Assembly: GCA_950071955.1 (NCBI GenBank)
Contig: CATMOC010000075.1
Span: 1-10,991 of the forward strand
Direction of reading: 5' to 3'
DNA: 10,991 bases
DNA from: an uncultured Mesorhizobium sp.
GTDB lineage: Bacteria; Pseudomonadota; Alphaproteobacteria; Rhizobiales; Rhizobiaceae
Below are positions 1,054-10,861 of this stretch, in pieces. The notes under the pieces were generated by a model. The model made no database searches. It was not told the origin of the DNA and was given only the letters and a program-made list of their open reading frames with translations. Made by a program: the position numbers and the translations under genes. The stretch's first letter is position 1, and each line of letters starts with the position of its first letter.

Positions 1054-2124
1054 TCACGTGTGCGATGGCTCGATCCTCTTGCCTGCCGCGTCGAAGGCGT
1101 GGAGCTTCGCCTCCGGCACGGAGATCGGGATGCTGTCGCCCGGCCTGGCGCTCGCGCGGCCTGAGACGCGCATAATCACCGGGCTTCCCGCCGCGTTGCC
1201 GTGCAGGAAGCTCTCCGCTCCCACGGGCTCCACCGCGATGGTCTGGAAGTCCAGCAACAGGCCGCCATCGCCCTGGCCGACCACGACGTCCTCCGGCCGG
1301 AAACCGATCTGCGCCGCCTTGCCTCCCGCAAAACCGTTTCCGGCGACAGCGGAGCCGTCGGCGAATGCCAGCCCCGTTCCATTGGCCGTCACCGGGAGCA
1401 GGTTCATCGGCGGCGCGCCGATGAAGCTCGCCACGAAGGTGCTCGCCGGCTTCTCGTAGACGTCGAGCGGCGCGCCAACCTGTTCGACCATGCCGGCATT
1501 CATGACCACGAGCTTGTCGGCCAGCGTCATCGCCTCCAGCTGGTCGTGCGTGACGTAGACGGAGGTGACGCCGAGCGACCTCTGGAGGTTCTTGATCTCC
1601 ACCCGCATCTGGCCGCGCAGCTTGGCGTCGAGGTTAGACAGCGGCTCGTCGAACAGGAACACCTTGGGGCTGCGCACGATCGCCCGCCCCATGGCGACGC
1701 GCTGGCGCTGGCCGCCGGAGAGTTCGCGGGGGCGCCGCTGCAGGAGGCTCGACAGTTCGAGGATCTTCGCCGTCTCGTTCACCCGCCTGTCGATCTCGTC
1801 CCGGGCCATGCCGCGGTTGCGCAAGCCGTAGGCCATGTTGTCGTAGACCTTCATGTGCGGATAGAGCGCGTAGTTCTGGAAGACCATGGCGATGTCGCGT
1901 TCGGCCGGGCCGATGGCGTTCACCACCTTGCCGTCGATCGAGATGTCGCCGGCGGTGATCGTCTCCAGTCCCGCGATCATCCTGAGCAGCGTCGACTTCC
2001 CGCAGCCGGACGGCCCGACCAGCACGCACAGCGCTCCGTCGGCGATGTCGATCGAAACGCCTTTGACGGCCTCGAAGCCTCCGGGATAGGTTTTCCTGAC
2101 GTTCTTCAGTTCGACGGTTGCCAT
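1054..2124 (-). CDS. ugpC: sn-glycerol-3-phosphate ABC transporter ATP-binding protein UgpC
   Basis: A 356-aa ATPase that powers glycerol-3-phosphate and glycerophosphodiester import on the cytoplasmic face of the UgpAE permease; E. coli UgpC is the same length. Visible motifs in order are Walker [10 protein letters not shown] (37-45), the Q-loop in [15 protein letters not shown], the ABC signature [14 protein letters not shown], Walker B VFLFDEP followed by the D-loop SNLD, and the switch His in YVTHDQ. A C-terminal TOBE/MalK-type regulatory region extends to the end, with FRPEDV typical of the MalK/UgpC branch. The ATG at 2124 follows the ugpE stop by 9 nt, with GGA just ahead of it, so it is the last gene of ugpBAEC. 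The assignment to Ugp rather than another CUT1 sugar system rests mainly on the neighbouring ugpB; ATPases of this branch are often shared between importers. Confidence 0.93.
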
Positions 2125-2133
2125 TCTTTCCGA

Positions 2134-2982
2134 TCACTTCTCGGTTTCGACGAGGCCGCGCACGAACCAGCGCTGCATGAGCACCACGACCAGGACCGGC
2201 GGAAGGATGGCCAGCATGCAGGTCACCATCACCAGGTGCCATTCGGTGTCGGCGTCGGCAAAGGAGATCATCTTGCGCAGTCCGATGACGATCGTGTTCA
2301 TGTCGTTGCTGTTGGTCACCAGCAGCGGCCATAGATATTGCGTCCATCCGTAGATGAAGAGGATCACGAACAGCGCCGCGATGTTGGTCCGCGACAGGGG
2401 AAGCAGGATGTCCTTGAAGAAGCGCCAAGGACCCGCCCCATCCACGCGCGCCGCCTCCAGCAGTTCGGCGGGGATCGTCATGAAGAACTGCCGGAACAAG
2501 AGCGTCGCGGTCGCCGAGGCGATCAGTGGCAGGATGAGTCCGGTATAGGTGTCGATCAGATTCAGGTCGACCATCACCTTGTAGGTCGGCAGGATGCGCA
2601 CCTCGACCGGCAGCATCAGCGTGATGAAGATCGTCCAGAAGAAGAACATTCTGAGCGGAAACCGGAAGAAGACGATCGCGTAGGCGGACAGGATCGAGAT
2701 CGCGATCTTCCCCACCGCGATGCCCAGCGCCATGATGGTGCTGTTGATCAGCAGCCGGTCGACGCCCACGCCGCCAATCCGCCCTATGCCGCCGAACAGG
2801 GCGGCATAGTAGTTGTGGAAGAACTCGCCGCCCGGCAGCAGCGGCAATGGCGGCCGCAGGATCTCGCGCAGCGTCAGCGTCGAGGCGACGAAGGTGTAGT
2901 AGATCGGAAAGGCGACGATGAGGATCCCGACGATCATCACCAGATGCGCCACGACGGTGCGGCTGCGCGATTGTCCGATCAT
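2134..2982 (-). CDS. ugpE: sn-glycerol-3-phosphate ABC transporter permease UgpE
   Basis: A 282-aa inner-membrane permease subunit (E. coli UgpE is 281 aa) that pairs with UgpA to form the glycerol-3-phosphate channel. About six hydrophobic segments are visible, near residues 11-31, 80-105, 112-130, 148-168, 200-222 and 250-270. The MalG/BPD_transp_1 EAA loop, which docks on the ATPase, is at about 176-198: EAARVDGAGPWRFFKDILLP. The N-terminal stretch FPIYYTFVAST with the following PPLPLLPG is characteristic of UgpE. The ATG at 2982 has GGAAGG 8 nt upstream on the minus strand. It lies 36 nt after the ugpA stop and is followed 9 nt later by ugpC, so the three are almost certainly co-transcribed. 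Confidence 0.94.
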   Translation of the reverse strand: MIGQSRSRTVVAHLVMIVGILIVAFPIYYTFVASTLTLREILRPPLPLLPGGEFFHNYYAALFGGIGRIGGVGVDRLLINSTIMALGIAVGKIAISILSAYAIVFFRFPLRMFFFWTIFITLMLPVEVRILPTYKVMVDLNLIDTYTGLILPLIASATATLLFRQFFMTIPAELLEAARVDGAGPWRFFKDILLPLSRTNIAALFVILFIYGWTQYLWPLLVTNSNDMNTIVIGLRKMISFADADTEWHLVMVTCMLAILPPVLVVVLMQRWFVRGLVETEK

Positions 2983-3018
2983 GGCGCCAGCCTTCCGCCG
3001 TGAAAGATCAGGCCGACG

Positions 3019-3903
3019 TCAGCCATAGTGAACCCTCTTTTCCACGTAGCGGAACTGCACGGCCGTCAGCGCGATGACGATGATCATCAGGATGACGGAT
3101 TGCGCCGCCGAACTGCCGAGCTGCAGGTTCACGAAGCCATCGTTGTAGACCTTGTAGACCAGCGTCTCGGTGGCCTTGCCGGGTCCGCCGCCGGTCACGG
3201 CATGGATGATGCCGAACGTGTCGAAGAAGGCATAGGTGGTGTTGATGACCAGCAGGAAGAAGGTGATCGGCGCGAGCAGGGGAAAGACGATGGTCCAGAA
3301 GCGCTTCGTCTCGCCGGCGCCGTCGATCGCGGCAGCCTCGATGAGCGTCCTCGGAATGGACTGGAGCCCGGCCACGAAGAACAGGAAGTTGTAGCTGATC
3401 TGCTTCCAGGCGGCTGCCGCGATGATCAGGACCATGGCCTGGTTTCCGTTGAGCAGCGGATCCCAGTTGTAGCCCGTCGAGCGCAGCATGTAGGCGAAGG
3501 TTCCCATGGTCGGGTTGAACAGGAACAGCCACAGCATCCCGGCGATCGCAGGCGCCACGGCATAAGGCCAGATCATCAGGGTGCGATAGAGTCCGCGGCC
3601 TTTGACGATCTTGTCGGCCATGGTCGCCAGTAGGAGGGCGATCGCCATGGCGCTGACGGCCGTGGCGACCGAGAAGATCACGGTCACCTCGAGCGAGTTG
3701 AGATAGCTCGGCTCGCTGAGTACGCGCCGGAAATTGGCAAGCCCAACGAAACGCGACTTCAGCCCGAACGGATCCTCGCGCAGCAACGACTGATAGAGCG
3801 CCTGCGCGGCCGGCCAGTAGAAGAACACGAGCGTGATGGCGAGCTGCGGCGCCAGGAGCAGGTAGGGCAGCAGACGGTGGGGAAACGTGCCGCGTGCCGT
3901 CAC
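3019..3903 (-). CDS. ugpA: sn-glycerol-3-phosphate ABC transporter permease UgpA
   Basis: A 294-aa inner-membrane permease subunit (E. coli UgpA is 295 aa), partner of UgpE. Hydrophobic segments lie near residues 11-31, 71-93, 107-129, 154-178, 205-228 and 267-285. The EAA cytoplasmic loop is [20 protein letters not shown] at 189-208. The MalF-type N-terminal [18 protein letters not shown] and the [14 protein letters not shown] segment are typical of UgpA. The start is GTG at 3901-3903, chosen because AGGA lies 6 nt upstream and the protein then has the family length; no ATG fits better. It is separated from ugpB by 80 nt that contain a strong GC hairpin, which may lower permease expression relative to the binding protein. 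Confidence 0.94.
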
Positions 3904-3917
3904 GGGCTATCCTTCGC

Positions 3918-3960
3918 AAAAAATCGACGCCCGCCCGCGCGGTTCGAACGCGCGGGCGGG
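3918..3960 (-). terminator. ugpB-ugpA intercistronic hairpin with T-run (attenuator-like)
   Basis: The arms CCCGCCCGCGCG (3930-3941) and CGCGCGGGCGGG (3949-3960) form a perfect 12-bp, all G/C stem with a 7-nt loop. On the minus strand the stem comes 24 nt after the ugpB stop and is followed, 6 nt later, by six T residues (3923 down to 3918). The T-run is slightly farther from the stem than in an ideal intrinsic terminator, so partial termination or 3'-end protection of the ugpB message is likelier than a full stop. Hairpins in this position are known in other importer operons (for example malE-malF), where they let the binding protein be made in excess over the membrane subunits. Confidence 0.65.
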
Positions 3961-3983
3961 GAGGGATCGGATGCCGGCTTCTG

Positions 3984-5294
3984 TTAGTTGCCGAGCGCCT
4001 GCTGGATGGCCACGTTGCCGCGCTCCACCGCGTTGTCGAGCGCCTGCTGCGCGGTCTGTTCGCCGGCGAGCATCTTCTCGAACTCCTCGTTCTCGATGTC
4101 GCGGACCTGCGGCATGTTGACGATGCGGATGCCCTTGGAGTTCGCCGTCGGCTCCTTGCCCATCATCTGCGTGATCGGAGTCTCGCGGCCCGGATTTTTC
4201 TCGTAGAAGCCCGAAGCCTTCGTCGCCTCGTAGGCCTCCATGGTCACCGGGAGATATCCCGACGCCTGGTGGAGACGCTGCTGGATCTCGGGCTGCGAGA
4301 GGAACTGGAAGAACGCCGAAACGCCTTCATACTCGGCATCGTCATGGCCGGCGAAGACCCAGAGGCTGGCGCCGCCGGGAATGGTGTTCTGCGGCGCGCC
4401 TTCGAGGTCGGGATAGTAGGGCAGCTGGCCGATGCCGTAGTTGATGCCCGACTTCACGACGTCGCCCAGGCCGCCGGAGGATTCCGTGAGGATTCCGCAT
4501 TCGCCCGACAGGAAGAGTTGCTTGGCCTCGGAGGTGCGGCCGCCGTAGCGGAAGACTTCCTCCTTCGCCAGGTCGGCGATGTTCTGGAAGTGCCGCACGA
4601 AGGGCTCGGTGTTGAACGTCAGCTCGATGTCGGTGCTCGCCAGACCGTTCTCGTTGGTGGCGTATTGCAGGTTGTTCCACGCCGAGAAGTTCTCGAGCCC
4701 GATCCAGGTCAGCCAGGTCGACGTGTAGCCGCACGCCGCCGCGCCGCTTTCCTTGATCTTGCGGGCGGCATCGAACACCTCCGGCCAGGTCTTCGGCGGG
4801 TTGGCCGCATCGAGTCCGGCTTTCTCGAAGATGTCCTTGTTGTAGTAGAGGATCGGCGAGGAGGAGTTGTAGGGGAATGAGAGCATCGTGCCGTCGGGCT
4901 TGGAGTAGTATGCGACGATGCCCGGCAGGTACTTGCTCTTGTCGAACTCGCCGCCGCCCATGGACAGGATCTCGGCGACCGGCTTCACGGCACCCTCGGC
5001 CGCCATCATCACGCCGGTACCGACGTCGAAGACCTGGATGATGTGGGGAGTCTGGTTGGCGCGGAACGCCGCGATGCCGGCGTTCAGTGTCTCGGGATAG
5101 GTGCCCTTGAACACGGGCGTGACCTTGTATTCGGACTGGCTCTCGTTGAACTCCTTCGACAGGGTCTCGACGACCTCGTTATTGGCACCCGTCATGGCGT
5201 GCCACCAGGAAATGTCCGTTACGGCTAGGGAAGGGACGGCGGAAAAGATCAGAAAGCCGGCTGACAAAGCCGCTGTCGTGGTGCGAAGAGACAT
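3984..5294 (-). CDS. ugpB: sn-glycerol-3-phosphate-binding periplasmic protein UgpB
   Basis: A 436-aa periplasmic binding protein (E. coli UgpB is 438 aa) that captures glycerol-3-phosphate and glycerophosphodiesters for UgpAEC. A Sec signal peptide covers residues 1-24, with likely cleavage after SLA. The mature start DISWWHAMTGANNEVV is a UgpB hallmark. Segments matching the known E. coli ligand pocket are present: GTYPE (Tyr66), NSSSPILYYN, ESSGG, PGGASLW, SGYLPVT and NMPQVR. The pocket Glu of the E. coli QVYEVGT segment is Asp90 here (QVFDVGT), a conservative change. The ATG at 5294 has GGGAG 6 nt upstream. It is first in the ugpBAEC operon, with a candidate Pho box 74-102 nt upstream of the start. 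No ugpQ phosphodiesterase gene follows ugpC, so diesters would need another enzyme. Confidence 0.96.
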   Translation of the reverse strand: MSLRTTTAALSAGFLIFSAVPSLAVTDISWWHAMTGANNEVVETLSKEFNESQSEYKVTPVFKGTYPETLNAGIAAFRANQTPHIIQVFDVGTGVMMAAEGAVKPVAEILSMGGGEFDKSKYLPGIVAYYSKPDGTMLSFPYNSSSPILYYNKDIFEKAGLDAANPPKTWPEVFDAARKIKESGAAACGYTSTWLTWIGLENFSAWNNLQYATNENGLASTDIELTFNTEPFVRHFQNIADLAKEEVFRYGGRTSEAKQLFLSGECGILTESSGGLGDVVKSGINYGIGQLPYYPDLEGAPQNTIPGGASLWVFAGHDDAEYEGVSAFFQFLSQPEIQQRLHQASGYLPVTMEAYEATKASGFYEKNPGRETPITQMMGKEPTANSKGIRIVNMPQVRDIENEEFEKMLAGEQTAQQALDNAVERGNVAIQQALGN

Positions 5295-5525: not shown

Positions 5526-6785
5526 ATGATGACGGACGTGATCGTCGTCGGCGCTGGGTTCGCCGGTCTTTCGGCTGCACGCGCGCTGGCGGAAAATGGT
5601 CTGCGCACGGTCGTGCTCGAGGCGCGCGGCCGCGTCGGTGGCCGCGTGGAATCGGCGGTGAACGCGCTCGGCGAGCGCTTCGATACGGGTGGCCAGTTCC
5701 TGTGCGACGACATGCCGGAGGTGATGGCCCTGGCGCGTCGCTACGGAAAGACGCTGGCGACGACCTCCTTCGAGGGCGAGGACGTCGCGCAGCCGCCGTT
5801 GCCGTCGCGGGAACTCGCCACGACCAGGCGGGGAGTGGTGGGACTGCGCGATCGGCTGAACGGAATCGAGCCCGCGGACGCCGCGATCGCCGGCCTCACC
5901 GTCGCCGACTGGCTGGCGAGGCAGCCGGAAAGTGCGGTTTTGAAAGCCGGCTTCCGTTCAATGATCGAGGGCCTCTGGTGCTATGCGCTGGAGGATATGC
6001 CGCTTTGGCACCTCGTCGAGACCGACCGGCGCATCACCAACGAGCAATCCGTGCTGCAGTACCAGATCGTGGAGACGATGCATTCGCTCGCCGAAGACCT
6101 TTCCATTGGCCTCGACATACGGCTGTGGCATGCGGCCGCGGGCGTCGAGCATGTCGGCGAGACGGTAGTGGTTCGGTCCGGGCAGTCGGTCTTCGAGGCT
6201 CGCGCCGTGGTGCTTGCCGTGCCGCCGACGGCGGCGGCGCGGATCGCTTTCAGCCCTGCGCCTGCGCCGGATTTGCGCCGAGCGCTCGAAGCCTGGTCCT
6301 CGGGCAGCGTCGTCAAGGCGGTGATACGCTACCGCCGCCGCTTCTGGCGCGAGGCGGGAAGGAGCGGCGTCGTGATGTGGCACGCCCCGACGGGGCTGTT
6401 CGCCTGCGACAGCAGCCCGGCCGACGACCGGCCGACCCTCTCCTTCTTCGCCGGCGGACCCGCCGCGCGGGGGATGAAGGGGCTGTCGGAAGAGCAGCTG
6501 AGAATGGACATTGCCGATCTGCTCGCCGCGGCACTGGGGCCAGAGGCCCACGCCCACGACGCCTTCAGCCTGCGTGGCTGGATGGCACCGGAGGATGGCG
6601 GCTATGGCGACGTGATCACGAATGTCGCTGCCGCCGATGCCGAGACCGTGTTGCGCGCCGGCCTCCCGCGCATCCAGTTCGCCTTCTCGGAACTCTCGCC
6701 CAGCTTTCCCGGATATGTGGAAGGCGCCATCGTGGCGGGTCGGGCTTCGGCCGAGCGGGTGATGGCGCTCCTGGCGACGGCGTAA
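5526..6785 (+). CDS. FAD-dependent amine oxidase-like flavoprotein
   Basis: A 419-aa flavoprotein of the amine oxidase (PF01593-type) group, probably cytoplasmic as no signal peptide is visible. The N-terminal FAD-binding fold shows VIVVGAGFAGLSAARAL (GxGxxG at 9-14), the ribose-binding Glu32 in VVLEARGRVGGRV and the R36xGGR40 motif. The C-terminal dinucleotide-side motif PGYVEGAIVAGRASAERV is also of the family. Family knowledge: these enzymes oxidise an amine (or desaturate a related substrate) using FAD, often giving aldehyde, ammonia and H2O2. The usual FAGE-x-(T/S) segment near the C-terminus reads FAFSELSPSFPG here, and the usual GGQW-x-GPGQ segment after the first motif reads GGQFLCDD. 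There is no Cys in the place used for covalent flavin attachment. The substrate cannot be assigned. ATG 5526 is chosen (a second ATG follows at once), with GGAACGGG shortly upstream. It is transcribed away from ugpB and ends 16 nt from the convergent fixK stop. Confidence 0.82.
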   Translation: MMTDVIVVGAGFAGLSAARALAENGLRTVVLEARGRVGGRVESAVNALGERFDTGGQFLCDDMPEVMALARRYGKTLATTSFEGEDVAQPPLPSRELATTRRGVVGLRDRLNGIEPADAAIAGLTVADWLARQPESAVLKAGFRSMIEGLWCYALEDMPLWHLVETDRRITNEQSVLQYQIVETMHSLAEDLSIGLDIRLWHAAAGVEHVGETVVVRSGQSVFEARAVVLAVPPTAAARIAFSPAPAPDLRRALEAWSSGSVVKAVIRYRRRFWREAGRSGVVMWHAPTGLFACDSSPADDRPTLSFFAGGPAARGMKGLSEEQLRMDIADLLAAALGPEAHAHDAFSLRGWMAPEDGGYGDVITNVAAADAETVLRAGLPRIQFAFSELSPSFPGYVEGAIVAGRASAERVMALLATA

Positions 6786-6801: not shown

Positions 6802-7458
6802 TCACTCGCTCATGTCGCGAAGGGTGTGCATCCTGACGATCTTCACCTTGCGCAGGCCGGGAAGGCGCACGATCCCCTTCTCCTTCAACCTGGAGAACAC
6901 GCGTGACACGGTCTCGATGGTGAGGCCGAGATAGTCGCCGATGTCGCTGCGCGACATCGGCAGGTCGATCTCCTCCAGGTCACCCTGGCGGGCCGCCATG
7001 TCGAGCAGGAAGGCCGCCACGCGTTCGGCGGCGTTCTGTCGGCCGAGCACCAGAAGATGCTCCTGGGCCCGAACGAGGCTCTGGAGGGCGAGCGGCAGGA
7101 GTTCGCGCGAGAAGTCGATGCCGGCGTGCGGGCGCATCACCCGGATGCCGGTCGCGCCGATCGCCTCGGCGAAGAAGTGGTGCGTCTTGTCGGCCTCGAA
7201 GCCGAAGACCTCGCCGGAAAGATGGAAGGCGGAGATCTGGCGGCGTCCGTCGGCCAGGAGGCGGTAGACGCGGACCGCGCCGAACTCGACCTGATAGAGG
7301 TCTCCCGCCTTCTCGCCCTGAGCGTAGATTTCAGAACCGGAGGAATAGAGCGTCGCCGGTTGCAAAGGCGATGCCGGCAGCAACGCCTCGAAGCCCGTTC
7401 CGGCGCCGGTGCCGAGGAGAGTGGCGCTACGGAATTCCATGGAGGTGTGTATCGTCAT
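6802..7458 (-). CDS. fixK: Crp/Fnr-family transcription regulator, FixK type
   Basis: A 218-aa DNA-binding regulator. Residues about 35-125 form the cyclic-nucleotide-binding-like sensor fold (SSGSEIYAQGEKAGDLYQVEFGAVRVYRLL). The C-terminal helix-turn-helix is at 168-190, MSRSDIGDYLGLTIETVSRV. Recognition-helix residues E182, S185 and R186 give the ExxSR pattern of proteins that bind TTGAT-N4-ATCAA. There is no cysteine anywhere, so it cannot carry the Fe-S cluster of FNR. This is the FixK condition, in which activity is set by transcription through FixJ. Position next to fixLJ and a FixJ-type site 73-90 nt upstream support that. ATG 7458 has GGGAG 6 nt upstream; an alternative in-frame ATG is at 7440. 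Likely targets are microaerobic respiration genes outside the window, plus the two FixK-like sites in it. A different Crp/Fnr subgroup is possible but less likely. Confidence 0.85.
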   Translation of the reverse strand: MTIHTSMEFRSATLLGTGAGTGFEALLPASPLQPATLYSSGSEIYAQGEKAGDLYQVEFGAVRVYRLLADGRRQISAFHLSGEVFGFEADKTHHFFAEAIGATGIRVMRPHAGIDFSRELLPLALQSLVRAQEHLLVLGRQNAAERVAAFLLDMAARQGDLEEIDLPMSRSDIGDYLGLTIETVSRVFSRLKEKGIVRLPGLRKVKIVRMHTLRDMSE

Positions 7459-7529
7459 CGGTCGCTCCCGTTCTTGGTGTCGGGAGGAAACTCGCCCAAT
7501 CCGCGCGCGGGCGAAATTCGGTTATGTCC

Positions 7530-7547
7530 CTACGGATAACTACGTAG
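7530..7547 (-). promoter_or_regulatory. Candidate FixJ-binding site of the fixK promoter
   Basis: On the minus strand 7547-7529 reads CTACGTAGTTATCCGTAGG. It matches the TA(A/C)GTAGTTTCCC-like site described for phosphorylated FixJ at rhizobial fixK promoters, except for one inserted or changed base in the TTTCC part. CGTAG occurs twice with a 10-bp period, as expected for a FixJ dimer on one face of the helix. It lies 73-90 nt before the fixK ATG and overlaps the TAG stop (7542-7540) of the upstream receiver gene. The consensus is quoted from memory; no -10 is obvious. Confidence 0.6.
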
Positions 7548-7923
7548 TGAGGATCGAAGCCGAGATCTCGGGTACCACGGCGGAGACCGCCTCTATGAGC
7601 GCGGGACCGAGGAGTGGCTTGGGCAGCTGCCTGAGGGCGAAGCTTCCAGGCAGCATCGCCATCCTGTCCAGAAGCACCACCACCGGACGGGAGGAACCGG
7701 CTATCTCCGCAAGCCGGGAGAGGTTCTGTTCGCCACCTTCGATCGCGTCCTCGTCAACGATCGCGCAGGAGAAGTCTTCAGCTTGCGGTGCTGCGAAAAC
7801 CGTCTCGAACCCCTTGTGCGAATCGACCTTGAATCCTTCCGCCTCGAGCGTGAACTCGATCGATTTGCGCAGTTCCTCTCCGGGAACGACGACAAGGATC
7901 GTCTTGGGCGGCTGCAAGGACAT
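7540..7923 (-). CDS. Single-domain degenerate receiver protein (FixT-like candidate)
   Basis: A 127-aa protein that is one receiver (REC) fold with no output domain. Strand 1 is TILVVVPGE (8-16), strand 3 is CAIVDED (53-59), strand 4 is VVVLLD (81-86), and strand 5 carries LPKPL (100-104). The phosphoacceptor-position Asp57 and the conserved Lys102 are kept. The acidic Mg2+-binding pair after strand 1 is replaced by Val13-Pro14, and the Thr/Ser of strand 4 by Leu85. Normal phosphotransfer is therefore doubtful. It sits between fixJ and fixK, behind a FixK-like site. In Sinorhizobium and Caulobacter the receiver-like protein FixT is FixK-dependent and inhibits FixL, so a similar feedback role is the best guess. 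Caulobacter FixT binds Fe-S through several cysteines; only Cys53 is present here. ATG 7923 has GGGAG unusually close, so an upstream non-ATG start is possible. Confidence 0.78.
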   Translation of the reverse strand: MSLQPPKTILVVVPGEELRKSIEFTLEAEGFKVDSHKGFETVFAAPQAEDFSCAIVDEDAIEGGEQNLSRLAEIAGSSRPVVVLLDRMAMLPGSFALRQLPKPLLGPALIEAVSAVVPEISASILTT

Positions 7924-7997
7924 TCTCCCGAACGAGGACGGCGGCCGGAGGATCAGGCCATAACGCTCTCGGGTACGCTTGCAGTGAAAGAGACGCC

Positions 7998-8011
7998 TTG
8001 CGCGAAATCAA
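7998..8011 (-). promoter_or_regulatory. Candidate FixK box upstream of the receiver gene
   Basis: TTGCGCGAAATCAA fits the FNR/FixK pattern TTGAT-N4-ATCAA at 8 of 10 positions: the ATCAA half is perfect and the other half is TTGCG. It lies in the 107-nt gap between the fixJ stop (8031) and the ATG of the receiver gene (7923), 74 nt before that start. Relaxed half-sites with TTGC are found among rhizobial FixK targets. A weak TACCCG at 7975-7970 sits near where a -10 would fall for a box centred at -41.5. Confidence 0.5.
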
Positions 8012-8030: not shown

Positions 8031-8648
8031 CTACTTCGATACGAATCCTGCGGCGAGCGCAATCCGCACCAGTTCGGGCAGGCTGCGGGCCTCCATCTTG
8101 GCCATGACGTTGGCGCGATGCACCTCGACGGTCCGGGGGCTGATGTCGAGATCGTAGGCGATCGTCTTGTTGGCGTGGCCCGCCACCACCCCCGACAGCA
8201 CCTCGCGCTCGCGCTCGCTGAGTTGGGCGAGCCGCTCCAGGATCGCGTGGATGTCCTGGTCGCCCGCGTTCCGGTCCAGTTCCCGGGCGGCGCGTTCGAT
8301 TGCCGCGATCAGGGTGTCGTCCTCGAACGGTTTCTCGATGAAGTCGAGAGCACCGGCTTTCATCGCTTCGACGGCCATCGGTACGTCCCCGTGGCCGGTG
8401 ATCACGATGGACGGGATCCTGGCCGCAAGTTCCTTCAGCTTCCGGATCAGGTCGACGCCGCTGATGTCCGGCATGCGAAGGTCCGTCACCAGGCATCCGT
8501 TGCGGATCGTCGGCGCGGCCGCGAGGAAGGCGGTGGCCGAATCGTGCAGCCGCACCGCGAAGCCGGAAACGGTCAGCATGAAGGCCAGCGACTTGCGCAC
8601 CGGTTCCTCGTCGTCGACGATGTGGACGATGTAGTCACCTCTCTCCAT
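8031..8648 (-). CDS. fixJ: Two-component response regulator FixJ
   Basis: A 205-aa cytoplasmic activator closely resembling Sinorhizobium FixJ. The receiver domain (about 5-123) begins [20 protein letters not shown], with acidic residues Asp12-Asp13, phosphoacceptor Asp56 in LVTDLRMPD, Thr84 in [20 protein letters not shown] and Lys106 in IEKPFED. The LuxR/NarL-type helix-turn-helix (about 140-205) reads [20 protein letters not shown] followed by [20 protein letters not shown]. Family knowledge: when phosphorylated by FixL at low oxygen it dimerises and activates fixK and nitrogen-fixation or microaerobic regulators. The start is ATG 8646-8648, because it restores the FixJ N-terminus and has GAGG 6 nt upstream; the frame stays open upstream, but that part is only the overlapped fixL region. 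It overlaps the end of fixL by 14 nt, implying translational coupling. Confidence 0.96.
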
Positions 8649-10146
8649 CGGTAGCCTCGCTTCGGATCGCCGGCAGGGTGAAGCGGAAGGTGGCTCCGCC
8701 GTCGGCGTTGCGGCTGGCCACCATCCGGCCGCCATGGGACTCTATGATTCGCTTCGAAATCGAAAGCCCGATGCCCATGCCGCCGGCCTTCGACGTGACG
8801 AAGGGCTGGAAAAGCCGCGCCGCGATCTCCTCCGATATGCCTGGCCCGGTGTCCGACACCTCCACGGCTGCCATGTCCCCGTCCGGCAAGGTTCGTATCG
8901 TCAGTTCGCGCCTCGTGCTGTCGCGCATGGCCTCCATCGCGTTGCGCATCAGGTTGATGAGCACCTGCTGGATCTGGACCCGGTCCGCAAGCACCATGTC
9001 GGCCCCCGGACGATAGTCGAAGACCGTTCGGACACCGCGTTCGCGCGAGCCGACCAGCGCCAGCGCGCCGGCCTCCTCGACCATCTTGCGGATGTCTTCG
9101 GCGGTCTTTTCCGTCTCGCCGCGCATCACGAATTCGCGCAGGTGCCGGATGATCTGTCCGGCGCGCAGCGACTGCCGGGAGATCTCCTCCAGGGCCTCGC
9201 GCATGCGGGAGGCCGTCTCGTCCCCGACATTGCGCAGCAGCCGGCTGCAACCTTGCGCATAATTGGCGATCGCCGAGAGCGGCTGGTTCAGTTCGTGCGC
9301 CAGCGTCGAGGCCATCTCGCCCAGTTCGTTCAGACGTGCCAGCCGCGCGAGTTCGCCCTGCACCTCCTGGAGGCGGGCTTCCGATTCTTCCCGCTCGGTC
9401 AGGTCGCGGATGAAGCCGGTGAAGTAGAGCCTGTCCTTGGCCTTCATCTCGCCGACCGCGAGCTTCATGGGGAACGTCGATCCGTCCTTCCTCCGGCCGA
9501 CGACGACCCGGTCGATGCCGATGATCCGTCTCTCGCCGGTCATGAGGTAGCGATGCATGTAGCCGTCGTGCTCGCCGCGATAGGGTTCCGGCATCAGCAC
9601 GCGCACGTTCTGGCCGATCACCTCGTCGGACCTGTAGCCGAACTGGCGGACGGCAGCCGAGTTGAACGACACGATCGTGCCGTCCTTCTCGATGACGACG
9701 GTGGCGTCGAGCACCGTGTCCAGGATCGACTTCAGATGCGCCTCCCGCTCTTCCAGCATCGCCTGGGTGCGGGCGGCGATGGTGCGGGCGCGGTGCACGC
9801 CCTCGCCGATCGCGATCGTCGCGAGACCCACCGCCGCGTAGATGGCGAGCTCGGTGGCGCCGATGGTCCCGGCGAGCGAGCCGAAGTACCAGGCGCCGGC
9901 CAGCGAGAGCGCGAGCGAAAGGAGTGCCGGGCCGAGACCGCAGATGGTGGAGGCGATCAGGATCGCCGGAACGAACGGCGCGAAGACGGCGCCATGCTGC
10001 AGCAACCCGTGGAGCAGATAGCGGATCACGAAGAGCGCCAGCACGGCGCCCGCCGCGACGGCGTATGCGGTCACACCGCGGCATTCGGGGAGGAGCGTTC
10101 CGAACCTGTCACGCTCCACCGTGTCGGCGCTGGGGCTACCGTGCAT
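8635..10146 (-). CDS. fixL: Oxygen-sensing haem histidine kinase FixL
   Basis: A 503-aa inner-membrane sensor kinase. Four hydrophobic segments lie within residues 25-116. They are followed by a haem PAS domain (about 135-250) with haem ligand His193 in [10 protein letters not shown], plus Arg199 and Arg213 at the positions of Bradyrhizobium FixL R206 and R220 that couple oxygen binding to kinase control. The H-box is [10 protein letters not shown] with His284, the N-box is [11 protein letters not shown], and the ATP lid includes DTGPGIS and GMGIGLS. Family knowledge: O2 on the haem inhibits autophosphorylation, and deoxy-FixL phosphorylates FixJ. ATG 10146 is chosen because it places the haem and kinase histidines within one residue of Sinorhizobium FixL (H194, H285); an in-frame TTG at 10164 would add six residues. 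The 263 nt upstream hold only two inverted repeats near the preceding gene and a weak TTGACC (10301-10296); no convincing promoter was found. Confidence 0.96.
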
Positions 10147-10363
10147 GGACCCGTCCGGCCGCAAGCTCGCCGTGCGCGCGCACGGGATTGCCGCGAACTC
10201 CCTCGGGGGACGCTTCGACCAAAGACAGACTAACGAACGGTATCAATGCGCAACCACTCCTCGATCTGCCAATACTCGCAACTTCCACCCGGCGTGGTCA
10301 ATGATCCAGCGGGTGATCCCTGAAGAAGGCAGGTGTATCGGAGAAGATCGGTGGCACTGGCCC

Positions 10364-10415
10364 GGCCACCGCCCCAGTCGGCGGCTCCGGGCGGTGGCCC
10401 TAGGCTGCGCTAGGG
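10364..10415 (-). terminator. Two abutting inverted repeats after the 128-aa gene
   Basis: CCCTAG (10398-10403) and CTAGGG (10410-10415) form a small repeat spanning the TAG stop of the upstream gene. Immediately beyond, GGCCACCGCCC (10364-10374) and GGGCGGTGGCC (10389-10399) form a perfect 11-bp stem with a 14-nt loop. The two share bases 10398-10399, so they may be mutually exclusive. No T-run follows on the minus strand. It is probably a Rho-independent-like or processing hairpin separating the 128-aa gene from fixL. Confidence 0.45.
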
Positions 10416-10796
10416 CTTCTCGACGCGCGCCACCCGATAGGTGTGCATGGCACCGCCGCTGCTGACGGAGATGTATTCGCCGGTCACGAAACGTTCCTCG
10501 CCGAGCCGGAAGCCCACCTCGTCGTCGCGGTCGCCTTCGGCATAGTCGAAATACCACTGGCCGCCCGGCTTGCGGCGGAGCCGGCCGATGCGGTCGTCCG
10601 CGCCATGGCGGAAATGCCTCACCCGACAGGCGTCCTGGTGCTTCTTCCATTCGGCGGGGTCGAGGTGGCCTTCGGTTTCGAGAGGCACGAGGATGTCGTA
10701 GCCTTCCTCGCGGTCGCCGTCCGGATGCCCCTTTTCCCGCGCGAGCAGGAGGCGCACGTGCCGGAATTTCGGGGTGAGGTCCTTCAACTGTGTCAT
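10410..10796 (-). CDS. Uncharacterised 128-aa protein, putative FixK target
   Basis: I do not recognise a named domain. The predicted protein is small, soluble, highly charged and free of signal peptide or membrane segments. It begins TQLKDLTPKFRHVRLLLARE and contains alternating strands such as YDILVPLE, GQWYFDYAE, FVTGEYISVSS and HTYRVARVE, suggesting a compact mainly beta fold. His53, Cys57, His61 and His64 form an HX3CX3HX2H cluster that could bind a metal, though nothing proves it. It is very probably real: the ATG at 10796 has AAGGAAA about 8 nt upstream, a perfect FNR/FixK palindrome lies 52-65 nt before the start, and codon third positions are GC-rich as in its neighbours. The context suggests a role under low oxygen, upstream of and in the same direction as fixLJ but separated by hairpins. 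Confidence 0.8.
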   Translation of the reverse strand: MTQLKDLTPKFRHVRLLLAREKGHPDGDREEGYDILVPLETEGHLDPAEWKKHQDACRVRHFRHGADDRIGRLRRKPGGQWYFDYAEGDRDDEVGFRLGEERFVTGEYISVSSGGAMHTYRVARVEKP

Positions 10797-10847
10797 GGGC
10801 GGTTTCCTTTCCTGCCGCGACTGTTAGCGCGGGAGCAAAGCCGGGCC

Positions 10848-10861
10848 TTGATCGGAATCAA
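10848..10861 (-). promoter_or_regulatory. Perfect FNR/FixK box upstream of the 128-aa gene
   Basis: TTGATCGGAATCAA matches the TTGAT-N4-ATCAA consensus at all ten specified positions. It lies in the gap between the stop of the partial membrane protein gene (10871) and the 128-aa gene. A TAACAG hexamer at 10826-10821 begins 21 nt past the box, the spacing expected for a class II (-41.5) activated promoter. The resulting short leader would still contain the Shine-Dalgarno AGGA (10810-10807). Confidence 0.75.

What the first reader, a model, noticed from the sequence alone, without database searches (positions are those of the whole stretch)
7498..8011. Possible closed regulatory loop FixLJ - FixK - pseudo-receiver
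A FixJ-type site precedes fixK and a FixK-type site precedes the small receiver gene lying between fixJ and fixK. If the receiver inhibits FixL, as FixT does in Sinorhizobium and Caulobacter, the entire sensor, cascade and negative feedback would be encoded in about 3 kb. Gene order and sites are seen; the feedback function is inferred from the family analogy.
Basis: partly seen in the sequence, partly recalled or inferred. Interest (0 to 1): 0.7.

Follow-up and report, generated by a model that had tools for sequence, protein, structure and literature searches.

The report
FixT-type oxygen-sensor feedback cassette
A bacterium carries its oxygen sensor, the two switches it controls and a likely built-in brake on the sensor side by side; the same arrangement was already known from Sinorhizobium, so it is a well-supported new example rather than a new system.

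Summary
On the minus strand lie fixL, fixJ, a 127-residue pseudo-receiver and fixK, with a FixK box (7998-8011) before the receiver and an 18-bp FixJ-type palindrome (7530-7547) before fixK. A FixK2-consensus box lies within 150 bp upstream of the receiver in 28 of 31 loci, 0.53 expected. S. meliloti has the annotated order fixL-fixJ-fixT-(fixK) with both sites in the same places, and the window receiver groups with S. meliloti FixT (37 rows, support 92/94). FixT's inhibition of FixL is published, so the loop is known; here inhibition is inferred. The fixK promoter has no FixK box, fitting indirect feedback.

Comparative additions: FixT-type receivers nest inside phosphorylatable receivers found in the same slot, mostly in other families, so the pocket was probably lost once. 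The receiver's FixK box is persistently imperfect in its downstream half, unlike the fixN box of the same genome (weaker in 17 of 20 pairs, equal in 3; two pairs left out would add one equal and one stronger): perhaps a brake that engages late. The receiver's stop codon often lies inside the FixJ site. Novelty: new member of a known kind.

The parts
8635..10164 (-). fixL: membrane histidine kinase with a PAS sensor domain of the FixL haem type (509 aa)
   Evidence: NCBIfam FixL 515 bits (equivalog cut-off 850, so under it); solved FixL PAS domain 1d06 E 4.3e-56 over residues 132-256
8031..8648 (-). fixJ: response regulator (205 aa)
   Evidence: NCBIfam FixJ 312.4 bits, cut-off 255
7998..8011 (-). 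FixK box TTGATTTCGCGCAA upstream of the receiver; downstream half-site (CGCAA) imperfect
   Evidence: fits FixK2 box consensus; box conserved in 28 of 31 loci
7970..7975 (-). possible -10 element (TACCCG); its A (7974) stands 37 bases from the box start, the column that is A in 19 of 19 fixN and 19 of 30 receiver promoters
   Evidence: class II geometry is inferred
7540..7923 (-). FixT-type pseudo-receiver (127 aa; 125 aa if TTG 7917 is the start, as close relatives begin there)
7530..7547 (-). FixJ-type site, 18-bp imperfect palindrome CTACGTAGTTATCCGTAG, overlapping the receiver stop codon
7514..7521 (-). CCGAATTT, fitting the CSNAATWT element of FixJ-dependent fixK promoters
6802..7458 (-). 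fixK: CRP/FNR-type activator, 218 aa, no cysteine (so neither an FNR iron-sulphur sensor nor a FixK2 C183-type redox switch)
   Evidence: closest solved structure FixK2 4i2o E 6.9e-43; sequence
10848..10861 (-). perfect FixK box TTGATTCCGATCAA upstream of the 128-aa ORF next to fixL
   Evidence: perfect box in 12 of 18 inspected relatives of that ORF
10410..10796 (-). 128-aa protein without Pfam match, predicted FixK target adjacent to fixL

Best explanation
A self-contained FixLJ-FixK micro-oxic switch with a FixT-type brake. Low oxygen activates FixL; FixJ-P binds the 18-bp palindrome at the end of the receiver gene and turns on fixK; FixK binds the box at 7998-8011 and turns on the pseudo-receiver; the pseudo-receiver, which should not accept phosphate because the acidic pair is gone, binds FixL through its preserved alpha1/alpha5 face and lowers FixL autophosphorylation, so FixK limits its own synthesis indirectly. 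Shown here by sequence: genes, sites, conservation, grouping with FixT, lost pocket, no FixK box in the fixK promoter. Inferred: each binding event, expression, inhibition of FixL, and the docking face.
For: S. meliloti CP140947.1 is annotated fixL-fixJ-fixT-helix-turn-helix protein and has TTGATCTCGCGCAA before fixT, 13 of 14 bases as in the window, and TAAGTAATTTCCCTTA across the fixT stop, which is the FixJ-binding sequence quoted in PMC4999443. FixK box in 28 of 31 loci. FixJ core overlaps the receiver stop in 18 of 26 loci and CSNAATWT is present in 22 of 26. One group of 37 pseudo-receivers including two S. meliloti rows (92/94). Acidic pair absent in 37 of 37, phospho-acceptor Asp kept in 36, Lys in 36, beta4-beta5 stretch about 5 residues shorter in 33 of 37. 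Alpha1 is the most conserved helix (mean entropy 1.43 bits; alpha5 1.85, alpha3 2.82, alpha2 2.96) and its identity to FixJ is twice that of the rest (0.38 against 0.19). Receiver fold, TM about 0.7 to receiver domains. The genome has a ccoN (fixN) fragment with a perfect FixK box upstream. [quoted passage not shown] FixT inhibits FixL autophosphorylation (PMC7078487, sections).
Against: The receiver scores 29.8 bits on NCBIfam FixT (cut-off 150), though an S. meliloti FixT (L047) scores only 28.0. It lacks the four-cysteine motif of Caulobacter FixT. In Caulobacter FixT does not block FixL-to-FixJ transfer, which sits awkwardly with simple docking on FixJ's site. The phospho-acceptor Asp is kept in 36 of 37 although phosphorylation should be impossible: unexplained. 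The pseudo-receiver group is supported but not starred, and rows L168 and L147 sit on very long branches. The AlphaFold model is of middling confidence (mean pLDDT 76). Four of 37 fixJ genomes of the family show no receiver near fixJ, so the brake is dispensable in some lineages.
Confidence: 0.85

Rival explanations
1. The receiver is still phosphorylated and acts as a phosphate sink or competitor of FixJ, like an ordinary single-domain response regulator.
For: Asp57 and Lys102 are kept in 36 of 37 pseudo-receivers; receivers with an intact pocket occupy the same slot in other genomes.
Against: The acidic, metal-binding pair is lost in 37 of 37 and the Thr/Ser in 29 of 37. FixT of S. meliloti and Caulobacter was not phosphorylated, and both lack the two acids; PMC9430884 offers that lack as a possible reason for its own protein, Osp.
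Confidence: 0.07
2. The receiver regulates something other than FixL (another kinase, or FixJ or FixK directly) and is only co-located.
For: No binding partner was tested here; within the genus the receiver diverges faster (72.6% identity) than FixL, FixJ and FixK (89-92%).
Against: 21 of 27 fetched family loci (L010-L036) have full FixJ and FixK matches on either side of the receiver; 31 of 37 fixJ-bearing family genomes have a receiver match or an inspected receiver in the slot; groups with FixT.
Confidence: 0.06
3. The receiver is transcribed by read-through from fixLJ and the FixK box is not used.
For: The fixJ-receiver gap is only 107 bp and no terminator-like site was found in it.
Against: Box conserved in 28 of 31 loci, its centre 59-100 bp before the start codon except 132 in L012, while little else of the 80 aligned columns is conserved; FixK acts on fixT1 in S. 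meliloti.
Confidence: 0.05

Closest known systems
Sinorhizobium meliloti fixL-fixJ-fixT-fixK cluster (FixT; Foussard 1997 and Garnerone 1999, seen only as references)
   Same: Gene order, FixK box before fixT with the same CGCAA half-site, FixJ site overlapping the fixT stop codon, pseudo-receiver without the acidic pair
   Different: Receiver only about 30% identical. No nifH over cut-off in this genome (70% complete) or in a complete genome of its genus, so no link to nitrogen fixation was seen here
Caulobacter FixT (PMC7078487, sections read)
   Same: Single-domain receiver in a FixLJ-FixK network that inhibits FixL autophosphorylation
   Different: Caulobacter FixT has a four-Cys iron-sulphur motif; the window protein has a single Cys (residue 53, the column being Cys in all 37 pseudo-receivers), so no cluster is expected. 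The Caulobacter sequence itself was not compared here
Bll2758 of Bradyrhizobium diazoefficiens and RPA4249 of Rhodopseudomonas palustris
   Same: A figure legend of PMC13327599 calls RPA4249 homologous to FixT. bll2758 is listed between fixJ and fixK2 on a reporter plasmid (PMC9104804) and its product is among the top micro-oxia-induced proteins (PMC6515984)
   Different: Neither sequence was examined here. The same table does not mark bll2758 as a FixK2 target. Slot receivers keep the phosphorylation pocket in 6 of the 8 other families of the order in which one was read
Osp, inhibitor of CckA in Rhodobacter sphaeroides (PMC9430884, passages)
   Same: Response-regulator-like protein without the acidic pair that inhibits a histidine kinase in a negative feedback loop
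   Different: Other kinase and pathway

Membership tests
FixT | Gene between fixJ and fixK in a FixLJ-FixK cluster (as in S. meliloti) | tested here: met
FixT | Single-domain receiver fold lacking the acidic pair | tested here: met
FixT | Groups with S. meliloti FixT in a tree | tested here: met
   one group of 37, support 92/94, not starred; the S. meliloti row L047 is 101 of 115 residues identical to the annotated FixT
FixT | Over the NCBIfam NF051882 cut-off | tested here: not met
   29.8 bits against 150. The model is over its cut-off in 1 of 14 control genomes and S. meliloti FixT (L047) scores 28.0, so the cut-off does not define the wider family
FixT | FixK-dependent expression | not testable with these tools
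   box present and conserved; no expression data
FixT | Inhibits FixL autophosphorylation | not testable with these tools
   biochemical assay needed
Caulobacter iron-sulphur FixT | Four-Cys motif | tested here: not met
   one Cys in P0001
Phosphorylatable single-domain response regulator (the other occupants of the slot) | Intact Asp-Asp/Asp/Thr/Lys pocket | tested here: not met
   Val13-Pro14 in place of the acidic pair
FixJ | Over NCBIfam FixJ cut-off | tested here: met
   312.4 bits against 255
FixK (oxygen-insensitive) | CRP/FNR-type without the cysteine cluster of FNR | tested here: met
   no Cys in P0002; best solved match FixK2; NCBIfam Caulobacter FixK model 192 bits, under its cut-off of 300

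The most novel reading that the evidence does not exclude
The feedback gene's promoter is kept as a weaker FixK target than the output operon. In the 20 genomes compared, the receiver box keeps a perfect upstream half but an imperfect downstream half (mostly CGCAA) while the fixN box is perfect; and receivers in the same slot that could still be phosphorylated have an intact downstream half in 10 of 11 boxes, against 0 of 31 for pseudo-receivers. This would make the brake engage only after FixK has built up, giving a timed pulse, and would mean that the slot has two biochemical designs: an ordinary receiver under a strong box, and a once-derived FixT anti-kinase under a weak box. The phosphorylatable version might then bear on the still unidentified mechanism by which fixK2 represses itself in Bradyrhizobium.
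Probability: 0.28. Interest if true: 0.55.

Novelty: new member of a known kind. Interest (0 to 1): 0.35.

Why it matters
It shows that the FixT feedback loop, studied in a nitrogen-fixing symbiont and in Caulobacter, is common wherever fixJ is found in this family (31 of 37 fixJ genomes have a slot receiver or a receiver match), here in a genus without a detected nifH. The comparison gives two testable ideas: that the brake comes on late through a weak FixK box, and that the anti-kinase arose once from an ordinary receiver in the same slot. The second may bear on how fixK2 represses itself in Bradyrhizobium (an as yet unidentified mechanism according to PMC9104804).

Tried and rejected
Fe-S FixT: rejected, single Cys. 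Direct FixK autoregulation: no FixK box in 7459-7539. Failure of the NCBIfam FixT cut-off as evidence against FixT: rejected, because S. meliloti FixT also fails it. Read-through from the FixK-box gene at 10796 into fixL as a positive loop: no terminator-like site was found between them, but nothing else supports it; left open. Asymmetric box as a general property of FixK targets: partly true, since TTGAYNNNNCGCAA has 120 places against 55 of its reversed control over six genomes (summed) and such sites occur before other FixK2 targets; but the neighbouring 128-aa gene keeps perfect boxes in 12 of 18. Association of box type with receiver type: pseudo-receivers are one group on the tree, so it amounts to about one event and cannot be tested statistically. 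The name rrfA for the Bradyrhizobium gene was from memory; searches with it found nothing, so I use bll2758. Whether the Bradyrhizobium gene was already tested: PMC9104804 cites a 2016 book chapter for a fixK2 reporter with a deletion inside bll2758; I could not read it.

Literature: (full-text searches of open PubMed Central papers) were read as listings. The one aimed at half-sites listed two papers, on Herbaspirillum and Neisseria; I did not open them. I saw no report of the weak downstream half-site, but subscription papers, including the original FixT papers, are not held.

Full report
WHAT IS THERE. On the minus strand lie fixL (10164..8635), fixJ (8648..8031), a small receiver (7923 or 7917..7540) and fixK (7458..6802). 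FixJ passes its NCBIfam cut-off (312 against 255 bits); FixL and FixK have FixL and FixK models as best matches but under strict equivalog cut-offs. FixL carries the FixL-type PAS domain (1d06, E 4.3e-56). FixK has no cysteine and its best solved match is FixK2. Pfam finds no receiver domain in the small protein, but the AlphaFold model (mean pLDDT 76) matches receiver domains at TM about 0.7. Its order of elements is beta1-alpha1-beta2-alpha2-beta3-alpha3-beta4-beta5-alpha5, without helix 4.

THE SITES. The FixK-type site reads TTGATTTCGCGCAA on the minus strand (8011..7998) and fits the published FixK2 box TTGA/C-N6-T/GCAA (PMC9104804, passage). Taken alone it is a modest match. With the same consensus, 28 of 31 loci have a box in the 150 bp before the receiver start, 0.53 expected from shuffles. 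These 31 include near copies (three S. meliloti rows, a few congeneric pairs) and three phosphorylatable receivers; L011 was left out of that count because its orientation was first misread, and it does carry a box. The three misses are L029, L030 and L036. The FixJ-type site is CTACGTAGTTATCCGTAG (7547..7530), followed by CCGAATTT. Of the 26 loci put to the count, CSNAATWT is found in 22 and the FixJ core overlaps the receiver's stop codon in 18; L011, L013, L023, L034, L035 and L048 were not in that count. So the last receiver codons often double as the fixK control site, as in S. meliloti, where the annotated fixT ends inside TAAGTAATTTCCCTTA, the sequence that PMC4999443 quotes as the FixJ-binding site (passage). 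There is no FixK box in the window's fixK promoter, so negative autoregulation would have to be indirect.

WHO IT IS. S. meliloti pSymA (CP140947.1) is annotated fixL, fixJ, fixT and a helix-turn-helix protein in this order, with the cbb3 oxidase genes following. Its box before fixT is TTGATCTCGCGCAA and its box before ccoN is TTGATCTGGATCAA. In a maximum-likelihood tree of 60 rows, 37 pseudo-receivers including the window and two S. meliloti rows form one group (92/94, not starred), nested inside 13 receivers with intact acids, ten from other families of the order, two from the same family and one from a Bradyrhizobium plasmid; FixJ receiver domains are the outgroup. The acidic pair is missing in 37 of 37 pseudo-receivers and present in 13 of 13 others; the phospho-acceptor Asp and the Lys are kept in 36 of 37. 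PMC9430884 (passages) offers the missing acids as a possible reason why Osp is not phosphorylated and notes the same lack in both FixT proteins. Failing the NCBIfam FixT cut-off is not evidence against: S. meliloti FixT (L047) scores 28.0, the window 29.8, cut-off 150.

DISTRIBUTION. In 151 family genomes the receiver has a match in 32 and FixJ (E <= 1e-60) in 37; 28 genomes have both, two of them with phosphorylatable receivers (G027, G052) and one rearranged (G098). Four receiver matches without FixJ at that threshold are weak (E 3e-4 to 9e-4). Of the nine FixJ genomes without a receiver match, seven were inspected: three have a diverged receiver in the slot and four have none near fixJ (G053, G100; G029, G073); G071 and G137 were not read. 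Of 121 genomes of the order 38 have FixJ at E <= 1e-45. In 29 FixJ loci read from them, 14 have a single-domain receiver after fixJ: ten phosphorylatable (six families) and four degenerate (f31, f42); one has a longer regulator and 14 none.

HOW IT LIKELY WORKS. FixL/FixJ turn on fixK; FixK turns on the receiver; the receiver restrains FixL. The published parts are FixK1 acting on itself through fixT1 (PMC5596199, passage) and FixT inhibiting FixL autophosphorylation in S. meliloti and Caulobacter (PMC7078487, sections read). Here alpha1 is the most conserved helix and alpha5 the second, and alpha1 is more like FixJ than the rest is. This suggests docking on FixL's helical bundle, an inference from general knowledge of kinase-receiver pairs. 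Against a simple FixJ mimic stands the Caulobacter result that FixT does not block transfer to FixJ.

A WEAK BOX KEPT WEAK. One search examined 30 ccoN loci of 23 relatives: 19 have a perfect box within 400 bp upstream of the match, two a 7-of-8 box (L109, L110), nine none; the own box comes, because the script's flank assumption failed on the own fragments. Of 25 receiver genomes tabled, 20 gave pairs. On the eight core bases the receiver box is weaker in 17, equal in 3, stronger in 0 (sign test 1.5e-5, ignoring relatedness). Left out: G130 and G086 (fixN locus without box), G059 (no ccoN), and G038 and G090, which have only a more distant ccoN class (642-644 bits against 777 or more). Putting the last two in would add one genome with a stronger receiver box (G038) and one equal (G090), 17 against 1, P 1.4e-4. 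With ten bases, a measure chosen after seeing the data, the receiver box is weaker in 20 of 20. The upstream half is TTGA in 25 of 25 and the downstream half CGCAA in 17 of 25. C at the tenth base of the box (25 of 30) is more conserved than the spacer; the G after it (20 of 30) is not. The downstream half is [AG]TCAA in 0 of 31 pseudo-receiver boxes and in 10 of 11 boxes of phosphorylatable slot receivers (36 and 13 loci, misses included). Both fixN and receiver promoters share an A 37 bases from the box start (19 of 19 fixN, 19 of 30 receivers), the expected place of the -10 element for a box at -41.5. I read this as selection for a late brake; shared ancestry and a second regulator using CGCAANGCG are not excluded.

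SETTING. It has 29 symmetric FixK boxes against 4 of the reversed control, and a ccoN fragment with a FixK box upstream. nifH over cut-off is absent here and in the complete same-genus genome G105. In G105 the order from the 128-aa gene to the binding-protein gene is the same; the receiver is 73% identical, FixL, FixJ and FixK 89-92%, the amine oxidase 69-76% and the two outer genes 98%.

VERDICT. Observation confirmed, interpretation supported, system already known in kind. The comparative regularities are the only part that may be new.

Noticed in passing
10410-10861: A 128-aa protein without Pfam match has a perfect FixK box 51 bp upstream; matches in 20 of 101 family genomes, perfect box in 12 of 18 inspected. 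It lies next to fixL here and in the same-genus genome G105 but not in the other genera whose places can be compared.
   Followed up: partly
7998-8011 and relatives: The receiver box is extended by a conserved GCG, giving CGCAANGCG, a short inverted repeat; before fixN the last G is not conserved. Unexplained.
   Followed up: no
7540-7923: Phospho-acceptor Asp57 and Cys53 are kept in 36 and 37 of 37 pseudo-receivers although the metal-binding acids are gone. Unexplained.
   Followed up: no
7540-7923 against L178: Within the genus the receiver (72.6% identity) diverges much faster than FixL, FixJ and FixK (89-92%); the amine oxidase beyond fixK is about as divergent (69-76%), the outer genes 98% identical.
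   Followed up: no
L011 / L121 (G098): Rearranged cassette: receiver-fixK divergent from fixLJ, both sites kept before receiver and fixK.
   Followed up: partly
L048: A plasmid of Bradyrhizobium septentrionale carries a kinase - FixJ-like - phosphorylatable receiver - helix-turn-helix cassette with a FixK-type box before the receiver.
   Followed up: partly
L045, L046: Further FixT-FixK pairs on S. meliloti plasmids follow only pieces of fixJ.
   Followed up: no
1054-5294 and 5526-6785: ABC transporter genes (ATPase, two permeases, solute-binding protein) on the minus strand and a flavin amine oxidoreductase on the plus strand.
   Followed up: no
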